Shown: positions 31,503 to 52,450 of the stretch, piece after piece
How the letters are laid out: each line of letters opens with the position of its first letter
How positions within the stretch are numbered: position 1 is the stretch's first letter
NCBI GenBank assembly: GCA_002700365.1
Contig: PADB01000010.1
Span: forward strand, 482,504 to 546,503
Length of the DNA stretch: 64,000 nucleotides
Direction of reading: 5' to 3'
From: Kordiimonas sp.
GTDB lineage: Bacteria > Pseudomonadota > Alphaproteobacteria > Sphingomonadales > Emcibacteraceae
Notes under the pieces: model-generated
What the model was told of the DNA's origin: nothing
Seen by the model: the letters and a program-made list of their open reading frames with translations, nothing else
Databases searched by the model: none
Position numbers and translations under genes: made by a program

Positions 31503-32267
31503 CTAGGGCCAGTCTATTTCTTTTATGCCGATAATCTCTGCAGGCGTCATCGCAACATCCACCGCCATTTTTGCGGAAATCCGCAGGGCTTCAATCTGCC
31601 CCGCTAACACTGCCCATTGCTGCGCTGTACCGATAACCACCGCCGCCAGGGCTGTAAGTGTCGTATTTGTCGCCGCGGATTCTGCATTCAATATCGGATA
31701 ATCAGACGCAACGGGATTCGCGCCAGCATCAAGCACCGCCTGGACAGCCTGCGCCTCTTTATGCTTATGCTCATACACCATCGCCTGCGTACTGCCCGCC
31801 GTTGTGTATTTGAGCCGCGCGGCCTCCGCATCTGCATCAATTTGCGCTTTTATTTTTTCGCGCAAGGCCGCCAGGTCATGGGCTTTAATCACAAAGTCGT
31901 TACAGATATATCTGCCCACAAGACGGCATAGGATAGGGTCAGGCGCATCGCTGGCAATCACGGCCTCGCCGCCAATAACCTCCCGCACATCCCCCGCAAC
32001 GTATAAGTAACAAGAATCCGGCAAGCCAGATATATGCGCCTCATCGCCGCCCGCCTCAATATCGTTCTTATCAACTTGCGGCGTCACGCGCACCCTATCC
32101 ACTAGAAGGGGGTTATCTGGATCTGATAAGTCTACATATTTTTCCGTGACATTCTCGTCTGAAAGAATGTAAGGCAAACCATCTGGGCGATAAGGCGCAG
32201 GCCCCACCGCCTGCCGGATAGATTCAATATGGCCGGTGACTGGGTCATAAAAAATTGCCTGGGTCAT
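31503..32267 (-). CDS. Phage tail fibre-associated protein (DUF4376-like)
   Basis: 254 residues. The middle helix (LREKIKAQIDADAEAARLKY) followed by TTAGSTQAMVYEHKHKEA is the pattern of the tail-fibre accessory domain often annotated DUF4376. It abuts the tail-tip gene with a shared base and is followed by the endolysin. It probably contacts or assembles the fibre. Confidence 0.6.
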   Translation of the reverse strand: MTQAIFYDPVTGHIESIRQAVGPAPYRPDGLPYILSDENVTEKYVDLSDPDNPLLVDRVRVTPQVDKNDIEAGGDEAHISGLPDSCYLYVAGDVREVIGGEAVIASDAPDPILCRLVGRYICNDFVIKAHDLAALREKIKAQIDADAEAARLKYTTAGSTQAMVYEHKHKEAQAVQAVLDAGANPVASDYPILNAESAATNTTLTALAAVVIGTAQQWAVLAGQIEALRISAKMAVDVAMTPAEIIGIKEIDWP

Positions 32268-35200
32268 TAATTCAGTGCCTCTTGCAGATAACCGACTCTC
32301 TCATTTACATAAAAATCGTCGTTGCCGTTCGCTTTTGTCACTTCCAGCGTGTAAGTCGCATCATCCCCAGATGAAAGGCCGGTATCTACGGCGGACAGGC
32401 CGATCAGAGTCCCCTCCCCATCAATCTCAACCTCTTTGCCGTTGCCCGCCCCGTCACCGTAAATATAACTTGTTGTCGTGCCATTCAAAACTTTACGAAT
32501 GCGCAATTTTACATCCGTGACGCCACTCTCACCTTGCAGATAAACGTTAAAGTTAAGCAAGATTGGCTTGCCCTTACTATCTGTCACCGCAACGTCAGCA
32601 ACATGATTCCACGAATACCTGTTTGCGGATGTAGTAAGATAGCCAGTAGGGGAATAATACGTATCAAGAATAGACGTGCTGCCATCGTCTATTTCATCAT
32701 AAGAAACTGTATTCAAATCGGCCAGATCGCCCGTGTTATATGTGGCGTTGTCCGCGGGCTTGCCCGTCCCTGAAACATCGTTCCATGTCTGATTAGTATT
32801 CAACACCGCGGCATCAGATGGTTGACCGCTGATATCCGTGCCCCAGGTCGCGCCCGCCGTAGCACCAGGTTCCGCGTCCATAACTTCCAGCACAATTTCA
32901 TCAATTTCAGTGATGCCCGCCGTAGATGAATGATTTACAAGGAACATTGGGCGAATGTAGCGGGCGTCCTCATGGATTGTCGCAGGGTCATTGTAATTTG
33001 GGTGCTCGCCACCATTGCCAGATACAGCATGGCCTGTAAAGTAGCCTACAAAATCCGTCCAACTGGCACCTACAGACTGCGCTGTTGCTGCTATGTAATG
33101 TTGATTACTTGCGGTATTCAAACCCGCGGTATTAACCAATGTTGTGCCATCTGCCGCAACACCAGCAACTCCGATATACAAAACACCGGAACCCGCAGTC
33201 TTGCGGGCGCGGCCCCTAATTCTATAAATTTTACCAGGATCGTATGGGACATTAATTTCGAACTGAAACCACCTTTGGTCATTACCCGAATTATCGCCAA
33301 CTCTTAGGAACTTGCCGCCCGCTTCGCCGCCCTCGACAATAGATATCTCACCGGCGCCGCTAAAGTTTTCCCAAGGTAAGTTACTTGTATCGGGATAGTC
33401 AAACGTTTCACGGACTGATATTCGCGCGTTAAGCTCTACATCTGTAGGCTGTCCCGCGATATTGCTGGACCATGTCGCGCCCAACGTCGCATTATCATCC
33501 GGCTTGCCCGTGCCGGATACATTATCCCATGTCACAGACGCAGCGTCTGCACTCGTCATATCAGCCGGCGCCGTCACATTCGTTACTGTCACCCACGCAG
33601 ATCTAACGCCCTGCGTTGTGATATAGCGAATACGAAAATCGTATTGCAGGCCATTTAACAGACCAAGAATCTCTAATTCACCCGCCTGCGCATCTTCGCC
33701 GCGGACTGGACTCCAACTCCCACCGCTCGATAGTTTATATTGTATTTCTGTCTCCCGAATAAACGGGCTGGCATTCGGCGTCCAAGTACAAACGGCAGCA
33801 GGCGTCTTTGCGCCCCCCGTCCCTGTTTTTACAACAGGCGAAACGGTAAACCCGTCAGGCGTGATCGCTGTAGTCGGGTCAAGAACACTCACCGCGCCCG
33901 CCGTACTTGCGTCTAACTCATCTGTTGCTGGCACCCATGAATAATCGGCGGATTGCTCTTCTTTCAGCGTTAAATCAACGCCGCCGTCCTGCGGATTATG
34001 CGCCCAGGCAATTACGCGAAACGTCTTTCCCGACCACCCAAACCGGTCATTATCCAGCATAACCGTATCCCAACATTTAAGCTGTAATGCCCCGATCTTG
34101 CAGGGCAGAGTGACGGCGATCTGATTCCGGCTGCGCCGCAAGTCTAGCAGGGCGAGGCGTTGCGCACGGCGATGATCTACCGTTGCGGGGAATGTCAAAT
34201 CATGCCAATGCCGTTCGCCCGCGTCCTCCGTCTCCCATGTCGCATTAACCCGTAAAGGCATGTCCGCTGGCTTATAATGGTCATCCGCATTGATATACAA
34301 ACCTTTTACCGCGTTGCGCAATTCCTTGCGACTTAGATAAGGCGTCAGGCGAATATCGCCGCGCAAGGCGGTTTCATCCAGTGTCACTGTCGGCACTGTC
34401 CAGGCCGCCACGTAAATATGGAACTGCCCTTGCTGGAATATCTGCCGGCCACCCATCGCCGATAAAATCATTTCTATGTTATCACCAACCCGTGACGCGG
34501 TATCCAGCACCCCGTCAAAGGTATAGCGCGCATGTGTCCCGCCTTCTTTAAGTGAAACTGCCTCATCGCAGATATTTGCCGCCGTAAAAACACTTTCCAT
34601 ACTAATTGCGGATAGGGGATTTTTAGGGCCATATAAACTAAGGCTGCGGTAATGCAGCCATACCAAAACGGGATTGCGCGACCATTCCCACGTTGTATGG
34701 TCATCAGGGCGGTGTGTGCCTGATCCGCCCAGAGCCGCATAATTCAGGCCATCTTTGCGGGGGTCATAAATTTTTAGCCCACGGACAATGATAGATGATG
34801 GTTTTATTCCATTCGGAAAAACGTCAATGTCATATTGATATTTGACATGGTAATAGGCAATCCCGCGCAAGCGATGATCTGCCGTCCATTTTGTGGGGGC
34901 CGCCGCCGTCATTACGCTGTCGGCCACCTGATCCGCCGTCCCAGTGTGTGTATAAAGCCACATCTTGCCCGCAAATTCGCCCTGCGCCGCGTTTGAGACA
35001 AAAGTCACTTCTTTGTCACCAAAATAAAAACTTTCAAAGCCATCAATGCCGGCATCCTCCCCCGCGCACACCGCCCATAACTGGGACATAAATTCATTAT
35101 CTGTCCCATAGCTTTGTGCAAAAACAGCAACGCCGCCAATCTCCGCGCGGCCATAGGCAATAGTGCGGGGCGCCGTGCCAGACCGCACCTGGACGCGGTT

Positions 35201-35404
35201 TTCTGGCATATCAATGCTAGGACGGGGGGATAAAACCCGTGCAAGGCCCGTCAGGGCAAGGCCCGCCCCAACAAAGAAAACGATTTCCGCCAGCGTGACA
35301 GCGCCAATCGCGGCAATCCCAACTGTCGTGGCAAAAAAAGCAGGGGCGGCCATAGGCAACAGCATTAGGCCAACGCCGATGGCTATAGGGAGCACTTTAC
35401 CCAT
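32267..35404 (-). CDS. Tail tip protein J-like (host specificity)
   Basis: 1045 residues. It starts with hydrophobic segments, then the conserved tip-attachment core. A fibronectin III-like domain covers ~523-610, and a jelly-roll-like domain ~667-841 (FRVG..., WFQFEINVPYDPGKIYRIRG). Repeated linkers resembling NVSGTGKPDDNATLGATW occur at ~625 and ~855. It is the tail tip and receptor-contact protein of lambda/HK97-type siphophages. It overlaps the upstream NlpC-like gene by 8 bases. Confidence 0.85.
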   Translation of the reverse strand: MGKVLPIAIGVGLMLLPMAAPAFFATTVGIAAIGAVTLAEIVFFVGAGLALTGLARVLSPRPSIDMPENRVQVRSGTAPRTIAYGRAEIGGVAVFAQSYGTDNEFMSQLWAVCAGEDAGIDGFESFYFGDKEVTFVSNAAQGEFAGKMWLYTHTGTADQVADSVMTAAAPTKWTADHRLRGIAYYHVKYQYDIDVFPNGIKPSSIIVRGLKIYDPRKDGLNYAALGGSGTHRPDDHTTWEWSRNPVLVWLHYRSLSLYGPKNPLSAISMESVFTAANICDEAVSLKEGGTHARYTFDGVLDTASRVGDNIEMILSAMGGRQIFQQGQFHIYVAAWTVPTVTLDETALRGDIRLTPYLSRKELRNAVKGLYINADDHYKPADMPLRVNATWETEDAGERHWHDLTFPATVDHRRAQRLALLDLRRSRNQIAVTLPCKIGALQLKCWDTVMLDNDRFGWSGKTFRVIAWAHNPQDGGVDLTLKEEQSADYSWVPATDELDASTAGAVSVLDPTTAITPDGFTVSPVVKTGTGGAKTPAAVCTWTPNASPFIRETEIQYKLSSGGSWSPVRGEDAQAGELEILGLLNGLQYDFRIRYITTQGVRSAWVTVTNVTAPADMTSADAASVTWDNVSGTGKPDDNATLGATWSSNIAGQPTDVELNARISVRETFDYPDTSNLPWENFSGAGEISIVEGGEAGGKFLRVGDNSGNDQRWFQFEINVPYDPGKIYRIRGRARKTAGSGVLYIGVAGVAADGTTLVNTAGLNTASNQHYIAATAQSVGASWTDFVGYFTGHAVSGNGGEHPNYNDPATIHEDARYIRPMFLVNHSSTAGITEIDEIVLEVMDAEPGATAGATWGTDISGQPSDAAVLNTNQTWNDVSGTGKPADNATYNTGDLADLNTVSYDEIDDGSTSILDTYYSPTGYLTTSANRYSWNHVADVAVTDSKGKPILLNFNVYLQGESGVTDVKLRIRKVLNGTTTSYIYGDGAGNGKEVEIDGEGTLIGLSAVDTGLSSGDDATYTLEVTKANGNDDFYVNERVGYLQEALN

Positions 35405-36451: not shown

Positions 36452-37471
36452 TTAAAAACGCTCCCGAATACCAAAACTCATGCCAAACTGTTTAAATTGA
36501 TCCGCCCGCCACCGCACATCGTCGGTCAAAGCAAATATGCCCTGGGGATTGTCGAAAATAACCAACTCCCCATCCGCTGGACTAGATCGCAACGCCGGCT
36601 CTATCTTTACCGTTGCCTCACCGTTGCTGTCGCTCGATGCATTCCAGGTCGCCTGAAAAAGCTGGGTGCCCACCTGAAAATAATCACCGGCCGCAATAAC
36701 GGCCTCTGTATCCACGGGCAGACCGCGCAAGGCGATTTCATCCCCTGTCTGCCCGCCGCCATTAACAACAATAGGATCAGTGTAGCTTGAAGCAGTGTCG
36801 CCCACCTCCACCATAGCATTACGACAATAAGCCAGGCCCGCCGTCTCTGTCGAAGGATAGTGATACAGACCTAACCGGATATAATCAAAGTTATCTTCGA
36901 TCGTCAGGGTGCGCGTATAGCGGGTATAGGTCAGATCAGATGAATGCGCGTAAACCTGGCTCCACCAGACGCCGTTTTTAATGATAAATAACGTAAAATA
37001 GCTTGTTACGCCCGCGGCGGCGGCGGCGGCATCAACTTTCAAATCAACAGAGACGGTCAACTTGTCGCCTGCACGGACTCCCTTGTTAACGCCAGGATAA
37101 GGCGTCCGCACCGCTATATCTTCCGTATAAAAAGGATAGCTGTTACTGGATTGTTCTCCGCCGCCGTTGAGCAAAAGATTACGGCCGTAATTCTTAATCT
37201 CTCCCCGCGGGCGGCGATTGTCAGGATCACCCGCCCAGAAGGTGCCATATTGTCCCTTTAATCCGGTAACAAACCCCCGCCAGACCGCCGCCTGATCTTC
37301 CGTCATGGGCGGCAATTCCAGCATTCCTGACCAATAATTACCCACACGGGAAATAACCTGTTGCTGGCCAGTAAATGGGCTTTCATGCACCACATTGTTA
37401 CTGGTCAATCCCCATTCACTGGCACGAATGCCCGCAGTGCCTGGCAAATGAAGTGGATAAGTCAACGGCAT
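36452..37471 (-). CDS. Distal tail protein with inserted sugar-binding-like domain
   Basis: 339 residues. The ends (residues ~1-95 and ~240-339) fit the usual distal tail protein in the TMP-adjacent position (EWGLTSNNVVHESPFTG, WRADQFKQFG). The middle starts with GRNLLLNGGGE and runs through repeated beta strands to ~235, a jelly-roll pattern like carbohydrate-binding modules inserted into phage proteins. Stop and start of its neighbours are within one base. Confidence 0.7.
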   Translation of the reverse strand: MPLTYPLHLPGTAGIRASEWGLTSNNVVHESPFTGQQQVISRVGNYWSGMLELPPMTEDQAAVWRGFVTGLKGQYGTFWAGDPDNRRPRGEIKNYGRNLLLNGGGEQSSNSYPFYTEDIAVRTPYPGVNKGVRAGDKLTVSVDLKVDAAAAAAGVTSYFTLFIIKNGVWWSQVYAHSSDLTYTRYTRTLTIEDNFDYIRLGLYHYPSTETAGLAYCRNAMVEVGDTASSYTDPIVVNGGGQTGDEIALRGLPVDTEAVIAAGDYFQVGTQLFQATWNASSDSNGEATVKIEPALRSSPADGELVIFDNPQGIFALTDDVRWRADQFKQFGMSFGIRERF

Positions 37472-39402
37472 CAGGCCAAAGCTCCTTTACGATAAGCACC
37501 GCCGCGATTCATCGCATCAAGCACCGCACCCTTACTCGCCTCAACAAGACGGGGGGCGGATTGCGCGATCCGCGTATCAACGCTTTCAAGTGTTGTGTCA
37601 AAGTGTAAATGCTGTGTGATATGCACTGCAGGCGCCGCGGCGGGGCCAGCCGTTGGCATTCTATGATTAGGGATGATGTCGCCATTACCGCGTGGCACGA
37701 ATAATTCTGGCCCGCGCTCCCCCACAATATAGGGCTGTTTACCCATCACGGGACCACCAACGGCACGACCAAATAAACCGCTTAATAATCCACCGCCACC
37801 TGTTAAGCCGCCTGTCAGCGTCCCTAAAAGATTTTGCAGCGGCGCAATGATTAATGCGTCCGCCAACATTTTCAGCAACGCATTTTTAAAAGACTTCGCC
37901 ATATTCGAAAATGAATCGCCGACGCTGTCGGTCCCTTCAATGAATATCGCGCCGAAATCCTCTGCAAATTGATCTGTTAATTCCCGCAGCCTACTAAACT
38001 CATTCTCTTGAATATCTTTTATTTCGGCGGCGGTGTTCTTGTTGATTAATATCCGCGCTTGCGCAAGCTGTTCTTCTGTCGCAATACCCTGGTCATGGCG
38101 TTGACGCCATATCGCTAACTCCTGCGCCGCCTCGGCCCTTGCCGCCTCAACTAGCCTGTCACTCGATTTTAACGCCTCAATCTCCAACTCTTTTAAAAGC
38201 TGGACCGTCTCCTCTCGCCCCTCATAGACACGGTCCCGCGCCTCTTCTCGGGCTGTGTCATCCGAATCCATTCTATCGGCAATGTCAATTCCGATGACGC
38301 CCCGATCTGTCCGCGCGGCCCCGTCTATGCGCGGCGGTTTCGTCACAATGGGTATGTTGCCATCGTCCAGCGCGCCGCCAACTATAAGAGAATCGCGCTC
38401 GGCCTCTGCGGCGCTGATCTTTTTTCTGATCCGCTTATGTGTCTGTGACTCTCCCCCCCAGATAGTAGGGGCATTAGCCAACTCACGATTAAGCCGCGCG
38501 ATTTCATCGGTTAGGCTTTTTATCCGCTCTTCTGCGTTTGGCGGGGCGATAATCTCCGCAAGATTTTCGTAAATCTCGCCCATTTTCGCAGTGACGCCAA
38601 ATTCTTCATTAACATCACCAAGCCGCGCCTTAATGGCTGTCAGATAACTTGAAAAGCCGCGACTAAGTGAAGACGGCATATCTTCAAACCGTTGATTAAT
38701 TTCCTCTTGCTGTTTGAGAAGCGCCGCAAACACGTCCTGGGATAGAACCTTGCCTTCAAGAACCATTTTCCGCAATGCGCCCACGCCTTCAACACCCAGG
38801 CCGCGGGCCAATGCGAGCGCCACCTCTGGCAGATTTTCAACAACAGAATTAAATTCCTCCGCCCGCAAAATCCCCGCGCCTAAACCTTGCGCAAGCTGCA
38901 ACGTGCCAGCATTTATCGCCTCTGTGCTGGAACCGCCCAAAACGCCTAATTGCTGGATCACAGCATTAAGCCGCGTGACATCTTCCGTGGTTGCCCCAAG
39001 GGCAGAGGCCGAATGATTGACGCGCTGGAACATATCAACATTGGCCGCCAAGGCTGTGCCTGTTTTGATAGCCGTTTCCAGCAATCGTTCATACACATCC
39101 TGATAATCACCGGTCGCCTTGGTCGCAGCCTCTATTCTTGCTCTCAAAATCGCCTGTTCATCGGCCGCCCGTACAGTGCCACGGATTGCCATAGCAGACG
39201 CATAAACGGCCGCAAAGGCGGCGCCGGCACGATTCAACCGCTTAAACGATTTATCAATACTTTTCAGGGATCGATCAACACGCCGCTGGGAAGAAGCCGT
39301 CTGTTTTTCCATGCGCCGCAACTCACGACGCAGGCGCTCCGTATTTGCATCAATGTTAACAAGTAGGTCTTGGGCTATTGTTGCCACGGCGGCGCCTTTC
39401 AC
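37471..39402 (-). CDS. Tape measure protein
   Basis: 643 residues. N-terminal coiled coil (LRRELRRMEKQTASSQRR), then the tape-measure domain (~70-270; LLETAIKTGTALAANVDMFQ, EEFNSVVENLPEVALALARG), a long helical region, and a Gly-rich C-terminal part with GPMAVGG-like VGERGPELFVPRG. It sets tail length. It starts with GTG at 39402, inside the 3' end of the frameshifted tail chaperone, as in lambda. Confidence 0.88.
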   Translation of the reverse strand: MKGAAVATIAQDLLVNIDANTERLRRELRRMEKQTASSQRRVDRSLKSIDKSFKRLNRAGAAFAAVYASAMAIRGTVRAADEQAILRARIEAATKATGDYQDVYERLLETAIKTGTALAANVDMFQRVNHSASALGATTEDVTRLNAVIQQLGVLGGSSTEAINAGTLQLAQGLGAGILRAEEFNSVVENLPEVALALARGLGVEGVGALRKMVLEGKVLSQDVFAALLKQQEEINQRFEDMPSSLSRGFSSYLTAIKARLGDVNEEFGVTAKMGEIYENLAEIIAPPNAEERIKSLTDEIARLNRELANAPTIWGGESQTHKRIRKKISAAEAERDSLIVGGALDDGNIPIVTKPPRIDGAARTDRGVIGIDIADRMDSDDTAREEARDRVYEGREETVQLLKELEIEALKSSDRLVEAARAEAAQELAIWRQRHDQGIATEEQLAQARILINKNTAAEIKDIQENEFSRLRELTDQFAEDFGAIFIEGTDSVGDSFSNMAKSFKNALLKMLADALIIAPLQNLLGTLTGGLTGGGGLLSGLFGRAVGGPVMGKQPYIVGERGPELFVPRGNGDIIPNHRMPTAGPAAAPAVHITQHLHFDTTLESVDTRIAQSAPRLVEASKGAVLDAMNRGGAYRKGALA

Positions 39403-39625
39403 GATCTCGCGCCTCTTCCAGCGCGACGCGGTTTAGGAAATCAGGATCAGGATCAGAAGATTGATCATCTTCCGTGTTTGGATTGTTAATTTTGACGTAA
39501 GTATTAATCGCAATAGTGTATTCAAGCGGGGTTGCCCGCCAGAAGGTGCGGGGCGACCAGCCAAGAACGGCCATCGCCACGCCAAAGGATTGTTCAATAG
39601 GGAAATGCGTTAGGTCATCGCCTAC
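39356..39625 (-). CDS. Second tail assembly chaperone domain, made by -1 frameshift
   Basis: The 89-codon frame from 39625 reads VGDDLTHFPIEQSFGVAMAV and continues LGWSPRTFWRATPLEY, resembling the GTA rcc01693-type tail assembly chaperone. The family-like part begins before the first ATG (39580), and there is no RBS for it. It is entered by -1 slippage at the A-AAA-AAG heptamer ending the preceding gene, giving a 204-residue fusion, like lambda gpG-T. Confidence 0.75.
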   Translation of the reverse strand, partial: VGDDLTHFPIEQSFGVAMAVLGWSPRTFWRATPLEYTIAINTYVKINNPNTEDDQSSDPDPDFLNRVALEEARDRERRRRGNNSPRPTC

Positions 39626-39969
39626 TTTTTTTTATTGCCTGACGCCGGCTGATCCTCATCGGCGCCAGCGTTGCCATTCAAAACGACAAACAGCACGTCA
39701 GCAAGCACGGCCGTTGTGTCTGTCAAAGGATGTACTAACAGCCCTTGGCCAATATCATTTTTTGACAACGCGCCGCCATGATCAATGGTTGCCCAGAGAA
39801 AAGCCGCAATTTCTGTTAGGCTGGCCTGCCCTACCGCCACGCGGCGGGTAAAATCCAACAGGCCAACGCCGCTGGCCTGCTCAAAACGGGCAATGTTCTC
39901 AAATGTCGGATCAATGGTCCATTCATCCGGCCCTAGTTTTATCCGGCCTTCGCCTCTTGCTTTATTCAT
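39622..39969 (-). CDS. Tail assembly chaperone (GTA family, Phage_TAC_11-like)
   Basis: 115 residues: LGPDEWTIDPTFENIARFEQ followed by ASGVGLLDFTRRV and LTEIAAFLWATI, typical of the 'gene transfer agent family' tail chaperones (G position). It ends in NKKK encoded by an A-rich run, followed by TAG. Upstream lies the tail tube gene with a 5-base gap. Produced in excess over its frameshifted extension. Confidence 0.8.
   Translation of the reverse strand: MNKARGEGRIKLGPDEWTIDPTFENIARFEQASGVGLLDFTRRVAVGQASLTEIAAFLWATIDHGGALSKNDIGQGLLVHPLTDTTAVLADVLFVVLNGNAGADEDQPASGNKKK
39625..39631 (-). promoter_or_regulatory. Slippery heptamer A-AAA-AAG (programmed -1 frameshift site)
   Basis: The last three sense codons before the TAG of the upstream chaperone gene are AAA AAA AAG. 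The heptamer is in the zero frame. Moving back one base joins exactly the next frame, open for 89 codons. I see no obvious downstream stem-loop. Confidence 0.7.
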
Positions 39970-39974
39970 TCAAA

Positions 39975-40397
39975 CTAAGCCTTTGTGTCGGTCAAAGCAC
40001 CCGTTGGCACAAATTCAACCTGATACTGGATCACATCCTGGCTGTCGCCGTCTAACTGGAAATTGCTGATTGTGAATGTGCCGGCGTACTTGTCGCCGTC
40101 CGTGTTATAAACAATCTCAAGCTGCACATCTGTAGGGGAGGAACCATCGCCCCATTTGCTTTGCAGGCGCTCGAAAACAGTATTGCCGCCCCCTGGATAC
40201 TTGCCGGAAACTGATACATTGCCGGAACGATTGACAGCACGGCTTGTCGCCCAGCCATCATCGTCTTTTGTCGTTGTGTCAACTGTGGTTGTGCTGCCGC
40301 CGAATGTTGTTGACTCCTGCCCTGGTATTGTATCGTAGGCAGAAACATCATCATATAGTTTGACAAGAACCTTCTTGCCCAAATCTGTTGCAGACAT
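39975..40397 (-). CDS. Major tail tube protein
   Basis: 140 residues with KKVLVKLYDDVSAYDTI and repeated beta strands, ending YQVEFVPTGALTDTKA, fitting the TP901-1/GTA tail tube group. The polymer of this protein makes the tail tube. It follows the DUF3168 tail-completion gene with a 24-base gap, the standard order. Confidence 0.8.
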   Translation of the reverse strand: MSATDLGKKVLVKLYDDVSAYDTIPGQESTTFGGSTTTVDTTTKDDDGWATSRAVNRSGNVSVSGKYPGGGNTVFERLQSKWGDGSSPTDVQLEIVYNTDGDKYAGTFTISNFQLDGDSQDVIQYQVEFVPTGALTDTKA

Positions 40398-49659: not shown

Positions 49660-51318
49660 TTACACAATTAATGTTCTGTTAGCCGCCGCGGACCTCACTG
49701 TACGGGCCAGCCACGGCGGGGTTAATGTTCGGTCAGGGTGCGGTGTATAAACCTCTCCGTTATCAAGCGCAGGCTGTATCCCCACCGCATTAGCCGCCGC
49801 AATCGCCGCCGTAGATGTATAAGCCGCGCCGATAGTTAAATCCGGCGCAAGGCCAGCCGCATTAGCAACACTCTGGCCCGCAGTGACAATATAACTTGCC
49901 GTCAGGTCTAGCGCAGGCTGTATCCCCGCCGCCTGCGCTGTCCCTTGCGCCGCCGTAGATGTATAAGCCTCACCAATAACCAGACTAGGCTGCAACGCCG
50001 CGGCGGTGGTTGCACCCTGTCCCGCCGTGGCGGTGTAGCTGCCATTTAACGAAAGTGTAGGCGCAAGGCCCGCTGTTGTGGCTGTGCCAACGCCTGCCGT
50101 CTCTGCGTACGCCTCACCAATAACAAGGCTGGCTTGCCCACCCGCTGTGACGGCGGCACCAATGCCCGCTGTCGCGGTAAAGCTGCCATTTAACGAAAGT
50201 GTAGGCGCAAGGCCCGTCGCCGTTGTTGTCCCTTGCGCCGCCGTCTCTGTATAACCCGCGCCAATGGTCAGGTTAGGCTGCAACGCCGCGGCGGTGGCTG
50301 TTCCCTGCCCCGCGGTGGATGTATATGCGGCCCCTGTTGTAAGGGCGGGGGCTAACCCCACCGCCTGCGCTGTCCCTTGGCCCGCTGTCGCTGTATAGGC
50401 CGCGCCAACTGTAAGGCTGGGCTGCACACCCGCGGCGTTGCCCGTGGCTTGGCCTGCGGTGGCAATGTAATCCGTCCCACCGCCCGCACTCGGCGCAACA
50501 AAACCAACGTCAGCGCCGCCAGTAGCCGCCCCTTCCAGAACATTACCAGCCTTAAATGACCAGTCCCCGTTTACAGGATCAGTGTACTGGCTGTACGGGT
50601 CAACATTATCTAGCAAGTCCGCCGTAGTGTCAGCCGACGCACAATCTGTCAGCGTAGCCTGATTGAGAAAATCACGATAGCCAGACGTTGGGCCATAGTA
50701 GGCAGCATAAGACCGGATCACATGGGCATAGCGATAAGGCGTGTACTGAACATTGTTGGGGTCAGTCTCGCGTGAAATCCATGTACAGTTAGTGTAAGTG
50801 ACGCTAGAACCGCCGCCCGCCGTGTTCATGCGGAACCCAAGACAATTTGTTACTTCATAATCGCCTTTCGGCGCGTATAGAAGATTACCGCCCGCGTTAC
50901 TACCCTCGCCATACACAAAGCAATCGTCAATTTTGTATAAACCACCCGCAGGCGCGCTGCTGCGCCAATCTCTAAGCGCATGAGAATTGCTCCCAAGCAA
51001 AACAAATTCAACGCCCTTGATCTCGACATGATCGCAGCCAGTATTTAAATCAATGGCCGCGTGGGACTGGCTTTGACTACAGTAAATCGACGGCCCTGAA
51101 CCTTCTTGCCCTGTTGTTTCCTCGCCTGTTGCAGCTCTGATTATGATCTTGGCAGACGTGGACGTGGTTACACCGGCAATTGAAATGTCCGTGCCTACAT
51201 GCCCCACCGAAACGTAACACTCGGCGATCTCGTCTTCTGTCAACGTGGCGGGCAAGGCCGCTTCCCACGCCGTCAGGGTGCTATAATCTTTGCCGTCACC
51301 AATCGTAGATGTTGCCAT
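49660..51318 (-). CDS. Repeat-containing virion/fibre protein
   Basis: 552 residues. The first ~260 look like a beta-helix surface protein (STIGDGKDYSTLTAWEAAL, then repeated short strands with conserved N, C and G), the pattern of right-handed parallel beta-helix phage proteins. Residues 284-523 are ten tandem 24-residue repeats with consensus YTaTAGQGTA-aaGL-P-L-iGaa, followed by a 29-residue tail. It is the second gene of the late operon, where fibre genes are not usual. Confidence 0.65.
   Translation of the reverse strand: MATSTIGDGKDYSTLTAWEAALPATLTEDEIAECYVSVGHVGTDISIAGVTTSTSAKIIIRAATGEETTGQEGSGPSIYCSQSQSHAAIDLNTGCDHVEIKGVEFVLLGSNSHALRDWRSSAPAGGLYKIDDCFVYGEGSNAGGNLLYAPKGDYEVTNCLGFRMNTAGGGSSVTYTNCTWISRETDPNNVQYTPYRYAHVIRSYAAYYGPTSGYRDFLNQATLTDCASADTTADLLDNVDPYSQYTDPVNGDWSFKAGNVLEGAATGGADVGFVAPSAGGGTDYIATAGQATGNAAGVQPSLTVGAAYTATAGQGTAQAVGLAPALTTGAAYTSTAGQGTATAAALQPNLTIGAGYTETAAQGTTTATGLAPTLSLNGSFTATAGIGAAVTAGGQASLVIGEAYAETAGVGTATTAGLAPTLSLNGSYTATAGQGATTAAALQPSLVIGEAYTSTAAQGTAQAAGIQPALDLTASYIVTAGQSVANAAGLAPDLTIGAAYTSTAAIAAANAVGIQPALDNGEVYTPHPDRTLTPPWLARTVRSAAANRTLIV
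49750..50469 (-). repeat. Ten tandem 72-bp coding repeats
   Basis: The region translates to ten units of exactly 24 residues without length change. Units vary at about a third of sites (for instance QPNLTIGAG, APTLSLNGS). Two units (YTETAAQGT and YAETAGVGT types) are followed by near-identical APTLSLNGS endings, indicating repeat duplication or conversion. Confidence 0.85.
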
Positions 51319-51803: not shown

Positions 51804-52052
51804 ATGAAAATCAATTACAGCAGAACAGCGTTAAAGTTTTTACGCAAAGCCAACAAAAAAACCAGCGAGATGATTGTTTCTGATATTGAAACGCTCGCTA
51901 AGAACCCAGACGCTATGAAAAATAGAACCAAAAAATTAGAGGCCCGCGAAGGATATCGTTTAGTCGCAAAAAAATATCGCGTGCTTTATGATTTTGAAGA
52001 TGAAGCCCTCACGATCTACAAGATCGGCCATCGAAAAGATGTTTATCGATAA
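51804..52052 (+). CDS. RelE/ParE-type toxin
   Basis: 82 residues, mainly a RelE/ParE fold: MKINYSRTALKFLRKANKK, then KLEAREGYRLVAKKYRVLYD and IYKIGHRKDVYR, a standard C-terminal segment (I..I.HR..VYR). As a RelE-type it would cut mRNA at the ribosome; ParE-type would act on gyrase. It precedes its antitoxin by 17 bases (HigBA-like order). Confidence 0.88.
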   Translation: MKINYSRTALKFLRKANKKTSEMIVSDIETLAKNPDAMKNRTKKLEAREGYRLVAKKYRVLYDFEDEALTIYKIGHRKDVYR

Positions 52053-52069
52053 CAAAAAGGATAATACCA

Positions 52070-52450
52070 ATGACTATTCAAAAAATTTTAAGCCCCAGCG
52101 GTGAAACGATGGTGGTTTTACCTGAAAACGAATATCTGAAATTAGTTGCCGCCAGCGGCCTCGGCGCAGAAGATCAGCGAGACGCGGATCTGATCGAAAG
52201 CCTAAAAAATGAAGAGACCTTCCCCCATAGTGTGGTTTTACGCCTGCTTAATGGTGAAAACCCTATCAAGGTCTATCGTGAACACCGTGGAATGACTGTT
52301 GCGGACCTTAGCCGTGCCGCTGGCATCAGCTATCGCTATTTGCTCAAGCTGGAACAAGACGGCGGCAATCCCCGCCCAGCAACCCTAAACAATCTAGCAA
52401 ACGCCCTGGGCGTTGATCCTGACGACCTCACCCCCTGGCCGCAAGATTAA
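52070..52450 (+). CDS. HTH-domain antitoxin
   Basis: 126 residues. The C-terminal half has an XRE helix-turn-helix (GMTVADLSRAAGISYRYLLK) with NPRPATLNNLANALGVD. The N-terminal half resembles a Phd-like segment (MVVLPENEYLKLV). It neutralises the neighbouring toxin and likely represses the pair through the upstream sites. Confidence 0.85.
   Translation: MTIQKILSPSGETMVVLPENEYLKLVAASGLGAEDQRDADLIESLKNEETFPHSVVLRLLNGENPIKVYREHRGMTVADLSRAAGISYRYLLKLEQDGGNPRPATLNNLANALGVDPDDLTPWPQD

What the first reader, a model, noticed from the sequence alone, without database searches (positions are those of the whole stretch)
39356..39969. Programmed -1 frameshift joining two tail chaperones (lambda G/T style)
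Seen: the upstream chaperone gene ends AAA AAA AAG TAG, a canonical A-AAA-AAG heptamer in frame. Slipping -1 enters a frame open for 89 codons, whose family-like sequence (LTHFPIEQSFG...) begins before any ATG and has no RBS. Known: siphophages make G and G-T tail chaperones this way. In typical GTAs the two domains are separate genes, so a frameshift version with GTA-like domains is a useful intermediate.
Basis: partly seen in the sequence, partly recalled or inferred. Interest (0 to 1): 0.75.

Follow-up and report, generated by a model that had tools for sequence, protein, structure and literature searches.

The report
Frameshift-joined phage tail chaperone genes
This prophage appears to make a second, longer tail-building helper protein by letting some ribosomes slip back one base at AAAAAAG, a well-known phage trick that the sequence and dozens of relatives support strongly; it is ordinary for a phage, but the same signal also turned up in some domesticated gene transfer agents.

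Summary
On the minus strand, the gene at 39969..39622 (Pfam Phage_TAC_11, "GTA-gp10") ends AAT AAA AAA AAG TAG. The -1 frame opens directly after a TAA and runs 89 codons beyond the slip, encoding Phage_TAC_6. The two frames overlap by only 7 nt, and those 7 nt are the A_AAA_AAG heptamer. The first in-frame start codons (GTG 39580, ATG 39574) lie inside the second domain and have no ribosome-binding site. In 208 non-redundant relatives, 50 of 63 minus-one pairs lacking an own start carry an in-phase XXXYYYZ heptamer, against 7 of 117 with a start; wrong-phase controls give 5 and 8 of 63. Best explanation: lambda G/G-T-style programmed -1 ribosomal frameshifting, a new member of a known kind. 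Frameshifting is the usual state in phage-like relatives (29 of 40 with long tape measures), so this is not an intermediate. It also occurs in some true RcGTA-type clusters: four clusters with the GTA "megatron" protein have the heptamer and no start. I found no paper mentioning that. Function, ratio and protein products are inferred.

The parts
39622..39969 (-). First tail assembly chaperone (gpG-like), 115 aa, Phage_TAC_11 / GTA-gp10 family; ends ...GNKKK-stop
   Evidence: Pfam PF11836 E=1.2e-8; AlphaFold2 model pLDDT 88.7, matches predicted viral proteins, several named tail assembly chaperones; best E 8.2e-5
39625..39631 (-). Slippery heptamer A_AAA_AAG, in phase, inside an A8 tract; it is the whole overlap of the two frames
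   Evidence: Sequence
39622..39624 (-). Zero-frame stop TAG directly after the heptamer
   Evidence: Sequence
39356..39631 (-). Minus-one frame: second domain (T-like), 89 codons after the slip, Phage_TAC_6 / rcc01693 family; no start codon before the domain
   Evidence: Pfam PF09550 E=1.5e-7, residues 14-42; TIGR02216 weak, below cutoff; LTHFPI.. aligns with L083 LTHFPI.. and FP motif of L034
39578..39580 (-). First GTG in the minus-one frame, inside the domain, no Shine-Dalgarno (next is ATG 39572-39574)
   Evidence: anti-SD duplex +0.4 and -1.5 kcal/mol
39975..40397 (-). Major tail tube protein, directly upstream
   Evidence: PF06199 E=4.9e-15; phrog_1407
37471..39402 (-). Tape measure protein, directly downstream, overlapping the end of the chaperone frame
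   Evidence: PF20155 TMP_3 E=1.3e-42

Best explanation
The pair is a lambda G/G-T-type tail assembly chaperone expressed by programmed -1 ribosomal frameshifting. Most ribosomes stop at TAG 39622 and make the 115-aa chaperone. A minority, with tRNA-Lys(UUU) in the P and A sites on A_AAA_AAG, slip back one base, miss the TAG and make a 204-aa fusion whose C-terminal Phage_TAC_6 domain is made in no other way. By analogy with lambda, the first domain would coat the tape measure protein and the fusion's second domain would recruit tail tube subunits, the ratio being set by the slip. Shown: frames, heptamer, domains, missing start, recurrence in relatives, a single host tRNA-Lys. Inferred: that slipping happens, its rate, and the chaperone function.
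For: Frames overlap by exactly the 7-nt heptamer. Domain 2 similarity starts upstream of the first start codon. No Shine-Dalgarno. Same 7-nt overlap with A_AAA_AAA-TAG in a divergent contig, L034. Of 180 non-redundant minus-one pairs: no own start, 50/63 with in-phase heptamer; own start, 7/117; Fisher p=1.3e-24; wrong phases 5/63 and 8/63. Clustered at 50% identity: 33.3 of 45 clusters in phase against 5.0 and 8.0. Heptamer identity varies (GGGAAAC 17, GGGAAAG 10, CCCTTTC 8, AAAAAAG 5, AAAAAAA 4) while the arrangement is kept. Host has one tRNA-Lys, UUU, and no CUU among 36 tRNAs; bacterial tRNA-Lys(UUU) is described as highly shifty, above all on AAG (PMC4066793). G-T frameshifting is widely conserved in long-tailed phages (PMC5009743) and has been measured at 6-7% for two HK97-like chaperones (PMC3711429).
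Against: No stimulatory downstream structure beyond chance (z=-0.09) and no clear upstream Shine-Dalgarno-like stimulator. The A8 tract also permits transcriptional slippage. The Fisher p-value overstates independence: the own-start class is largely one clade, and the tree-corrected pair test had too few supported pairs to decide. The only near-identical sequence (IMG/VR contig) is nucleotide-identical, so it adds no substitution evidence. No protein data.
Confidence: 0.9

Rival explanations
1. Programmed transcriptional slippage: RNA polymerase adds one A in the A8 tract, giving an mRNA in which both domains are in one frame.
For: A8 tract here, A9 in L034 and L176. Run lengths above 7 A have been implicated in transcriptional realignment (PMC3711429); in many genomes selection against runs is evident from nine (PMC1088944).
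Against: A-type relatives have runs of only 6 (L120, L137, L170) or 7 (L084, L127), and most relatives use GGGAAAC/GGGAAAG/CCCTTTC, which are poor transcriptional slippage sites (own knowledge), in the same arrangement. A8 is below the commonest length of nine.
Confidence: 0.06
2. The second domain is made on its own by re-initiation at GTG 39580 or ATG 39574 after termination at TAG 39622.
For: These are the first start codons in the frame; many relatives do have own starts, mostly overlapping the stop.
Against: It would cut off the conserved N-terminal FP motif, lies about 42 nt or more after the stop, and has no Shine-Dalgarno.
Confidence: 0.03
3. Sequencing error or decay: one A is missing from the homopolymer and the true gene is a single open frame, or the gene is a pseudogene.
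For: One extra A would fuse the frames; homopolymer errors exist.
Against: The IMG/VR contig agrees over 6 kb (perhaps not independent); L034 and dozens of diverged relatives have the same two-frame design; no relative in the survey was seen fused in one frame; the module around it is intact.
Confidence: 0.01

Closest known systems
Phage lambda G/G-T tail chaperones and the conserved frameshift in tail assembly genes (Xu, Hendrix, Duda 2004; reviewed in PMC5009743)
   Same: Two ORFs between major tail protein and tape measure, -1 relation, slippery heptamer at the end of the first, second ORF with no start
   Different: Different protein families (Phage_TAC_11/TAC_6); heptamer A_AAA_AAG rather than lambda's G_GGA_AAG (lambda's from memory); frame overlap only 7 nt
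RcGTA g10 and g10.5, 'tail chaperone 1 and 2' (PMC11409702)
   Same: Same first-domain family (pfam11836) and, by TIGR02216 (rcc01693 family), the same kind of second gene; same gene order
   Different: In RcGTA-type cluster L258/L043 the second gene starts at an ATG overlapping the first gene's stop; the window is in a prophage with a long tape measure and no megatron protein. R. capsulatus itself was not in the data
E. coli dnaX frameshift (A_AAA_AAG)
   Same: Same heptamer; E. coli too reads both lysine codons with tRNA-Lys(UUU) (own knowledge)
   Different: dnaX shortens the product and uses an upstream Shine-Dalgarno and a downstream hairpin; neither is evident here
IMG/VR contig 3300037604_000012 (L034)
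   Same: Same 7-nt overlap: A_AAA_AAA-TAG, then a short linker and the FP motif
   Different: Proteins 15-19% identical to the window's over the alignments; A9 tract

Membership tests
Lambda G/G-T-type frameshifted tail assembly chaperones | Two small ORFs between the major tail protein and the tape measure gene | tested here: met
   PF06199 upstream, TMP_3 downstream
Lambda G/G-T-type frameshifted tail assembly chaperones | Second ORF in the -1 frame with an in-phase slippery heptamer in the overlap | tested here: met
Lambda G/G-T-type frameshifted tail assembly chaperones | Second domain has no usable start of its own | tested here: met
Lambda G/G-T-type frameshifted tail assembly chaperones | Arrangement conserved in relatives with diverged sequence | tested here: met
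   50/63 against 7/117; wrong phases 5/63, 8/63; cluster level
Lambda G/G-T-type frameshifted tail assembly chaperones | First product folds like a tail assembly chaperone | tested here: met
   Model pLDDT 88.7; best BFVD match E 8.2e-5 unnamed; several annotated tail assembly chaperones at E 2e-3 to 0.02 with probability near 1; no PDB match
Lambda G/G-T-type frameshifted tail assembly chaperones | Low, fixed ratio of fusion to short product, both needed for tail assembly and absent from the virion | not testable with these tools
   Needs protein and genetics
RcGTA-type gene transfer agent | Megatron baseplate protein (NF048004) | tested here: not met
   No hit for window 32267-35404 at E<=1e-3
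RcGTA-type gene transfer agent | Short RcGTA-type tape measure; no phage regulation genes | tested here: not met
   643-aa TMP_3; S24 repressor, methylase, HTH/DnaA_N protein
Programmed transcriptional realignment | Homopolymer run long enough to slip, conserved as a run | tested here: inconclusive
   A8 here; relatives A6-A9 or not homopolymeric

The most novel reading that the evidence does not exclude
The G-T type frameshift has been retained in a set of domesticated RcGTA-type gene transfer agents, while other GTA lineages have replaced it by an overlapping start codon. Four clusters with the megatron protein (L254/L046, L255/L052, L256/L061, L261/L068) have the two chaperone domains in -1 relation, no ATG/GTG/TTG before the second and an in-phase heptamer (C_CCT_TTC or G_GGA_AAG). 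In one bacterial family all five examples keep CCCTTTC. Chaperone ratio control would thus have passed from recoding to separate initiation more than once during domestication.
Probability: 0.7. Interest if true: 0.5.

Novelty: new member of a known kind. Interest (0 to 1): 0.35.

Why it matters
For the window itself: it corrects the annotation (one 204-aa fusion instead of a lost or truncated second gene) and adds a clean case in which the frame overlap is nothing but the heptamer. More broadly, the survey shows that the GTA-type chaperone pair exists in two states, frameshift and own start, across phages and GTAs. It makes testable how a domesticated phage keeps or replaces a recoding step that sets tail assembly.

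Tried and rejected
Stimulatory RNA structure: the 90 nt downstream fold no better than shuffles (z=-0.09). Nucleotide comparison with the near-identical IMG/VR contig: no differences over 6 kb, so no substitution test. Solved structures: no sequence relatives for either domain and no fold match in the PDB. Tape measure scan of genome contigs found no relative. Loose alignments gave no searchable pattern. Tree-corrected pair test was underpowered; the tree does not place the window with support. A conservation test in the family of the GGGAAAG GTA (L052) found no second example: 1 of 4 genomes. 'Intermediate between phage and GTA' rejected: the frameshift is the common phage state.

Full report
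OBSERVATION. The minus-strand gene 39969..39622 ends AAT AAA AAA AAG TAG. In the -1 frame the reading is ...CAA TAA | AAA AAA GTA GGC GAT GAC CTA ACG CAT TTC CCT ATT.... The -1 frame therefore opens at the first base of A_AAA_AAG and the zero frame closes at its last base: the frames share exactly 7 nt. AAAAAAG is not rare in this window (37 copies, 15.4 expected), so the heptamer alone would mean little.

WHAT THE TWO DOMAINS ARE. The first is Phage_TAC_11, 'GTA-gp10' (PF11836, E=1.2e-8); the second is Phage_TAC_6 (PF09550, E=1.5e-7), with a weak hit to TIGR02216, the rcc01693 family. They sit between a tail tube protein (PF06199) and a tape measure protein (TMP_3). A model of the first domain (mean pLDDT 88.7) matches predicted viral proteins, several of them named tail assembly chaperones; no solved structure matches. 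The second domain's family similarity begins before the first start codon: LTHFPIEQSFGVAMAVLGW aligns with LTHFPIRRYIQLGCGVMGY in L083 and with EYFPLQDYIKIALGVLKL in L034. GTG 39580 and ATG 39574 lie inside the domain and have no Shine-Dalgarno pairing (+0.4 and -1.5 kcal/mol; other genes of the module -3.0 to -8.5).

RELATIVES. I collected 253 loci from whole genomes, IMG/VR contigs, GTDB contigs and phage records. A profile of TAC_6 found 251 of them and TAC_11 was found next to 246; 208 were non-redundant: 180 in -1 relation, 19 in +1, 9 in the same frame with a stop between. Overlapping starts (ATGA, GTGA) also give a -1 relation, so relation alone proves nothing. The informative split is by start codon. 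Of 63 minus-one pairs with no ATG/GTG/TTG before the second domain, 50 carry an in-phase XXXYYYZ heptamer at the end of the first gene. Of 117 with a start, 7 do (Fisher p=1.3e-24). The same heptamer set in the two wrong phases occurs in 5 and 8 of the 63. The rules were set after a first look at 113 loci, so the p-value is descriptive. Relatedness inflates it too: the own-start class is mostly one clade (93 rows, support 91) and the tree-corrected pair test was underpowered. Clustering the start-less loci at 50% identity still gives 33.3 of 45 clusters in phase against 5.0 and 8.0. The heptamers differ between lineages, which speaks for selection on slippage rather than inheritance of one sequence.

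NEAREST DESIGN. L034 (IMG/VR 3300037604_000012) ends ...EEDKKK with A_AAA_AAA TAG and has the same 7-nt overlap; L127 has 10 nt. The contig IMG/VR 3300020466_000334 is nucleotide-identical to the window over 6 kb.

MECHANISM. The host has one tRNA-Lys, anticodon UUU, and none with CUU among 36 tRNAs. PMC4066793 reports that X_XXA_AAG heptamers are the most proficient in E. coli and attributes this to the shiftiness of tRNA-Lys(UUU) on AAG. No downstream structure is better than shuffled sequence, so a low rate is likely (inference). In lambda the ratio is about 30:1 (PMC5009743), and two HK97-like chaperones measured 6 and 7% (PMC3711429). Transcriptional slippage in the A8 tract is the main rival. 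Relatives with runs of 6 or 7 A and with GGGAAAC or CCCTTTC keep the same design, which argues for the ribosome.

PHAGE OR GTA. Using the length of the following tape measure gene as a guide, phage-like loci (long) are 29 frameshift-type, 6 start-less without canonical heptamer and 5 with a start; GTA-like loci (short) are 18, 8 and 136. The guide is crude: some short ORFs are artefacts of flank ends. The window belongs with the phages: S24 repressor, DNA methylase, M15 peptidase, 643-aa tape measure, no megatron hit. So the frameshift here is the ordinary phage state, not an intermediate.

FRAMESHIFT IN GTAs. Four clusters with start-less TAC_6 and a heptamer contain the GTA megatron equivalog at about 1800 bits (L254 and L255; L256 and L261); for L254 and L255 I also checked TIGR02217/02218/02219, and for L255 terminase, portal and capsid. 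L052/L255 has G_GGA_AAG directly before TAG. L046/L254, L061/L256 and L068/L261 have C_CCT_TTC, coding the PF of the conserved PFPW motif in the -1 frame. In the bacterial family of L046 all five examples keep CCCTTTC; in L305 the -1 frame opens only 3 nt before it. L071/L257 has GGGAAAG plus a TTGA overlap and is ambiguous; L043/L258 has an own ATG. Caution: CCCTTTC is partly dictated by the protein motif, and its slip rate was not found in the papers read. I found no paper describing frameshifting at GTA g10/g10.5; the library lacks most subscription journals. PMC11409702 calls these genes tail chaperone 1 and 2. PMC8601537 says frameshifting is usual in the chaperone genes of R. capsulatus phages.

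VERDICT. Observation confirmed; mechanism very likely ribosomal -1 frameshifting; known kind; modest interest, raised a little by the GTA comparison.

Noticed in passing
L254 (G224), L255 (G322), L256 (G108), L261 (G241); also L303-L305: RcGTA-type clusters with start-less second chaperone domain and an in-phase heptamer (CCCTTTC or GGGAAAG); CCCTTTC kept in all five examples of one bacterial family.
   Followed up: partly
L118, L119, L125, L179: Start-less pairs without a canonical heptamer share TCG GGG GAA (or TCG GGG AAG) near the end of the first gene, perhaps a non-canonical G-rich slip site.
   Followed up: no
L039 (Sinorhizobium phage phi2LM21, MF614627.1): The second chaperone is annotated as starting at the CTG that overlaps the first gene's stop; the in-phase GGGAAAG upstream suggests it is a frameshift product.
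   Followed up: no
L203 (JAHREI010000002.1): A contig titled Bacillus subtilis SK6B4 carries an alphaproteobacterial-type prophage module close to that of Pseudochrobactrum (L202); probably a mislabelled or contaminated assembly.
   Followed up: no
49660-51318 (-): 552-aa protein made largely of degenerate repeats of the type TATAGQGTAQAAGLAPxLxxGxxY, upstream of the terminase gene; function unknown.
   Followed up: no
51804-52450 (+): Small RelE-like ORF (by eye) followed by a 126-aa HTH_3 protein, a likely toxin-antitoxin pair on the opposite strand of the late genes.
   Followed up: no
window, whole: AAAAAAG is over-represented (37 against 15.4 expected) in spite of a single shift-prone host tRNA-Lys(UUU).
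   Followed up: no
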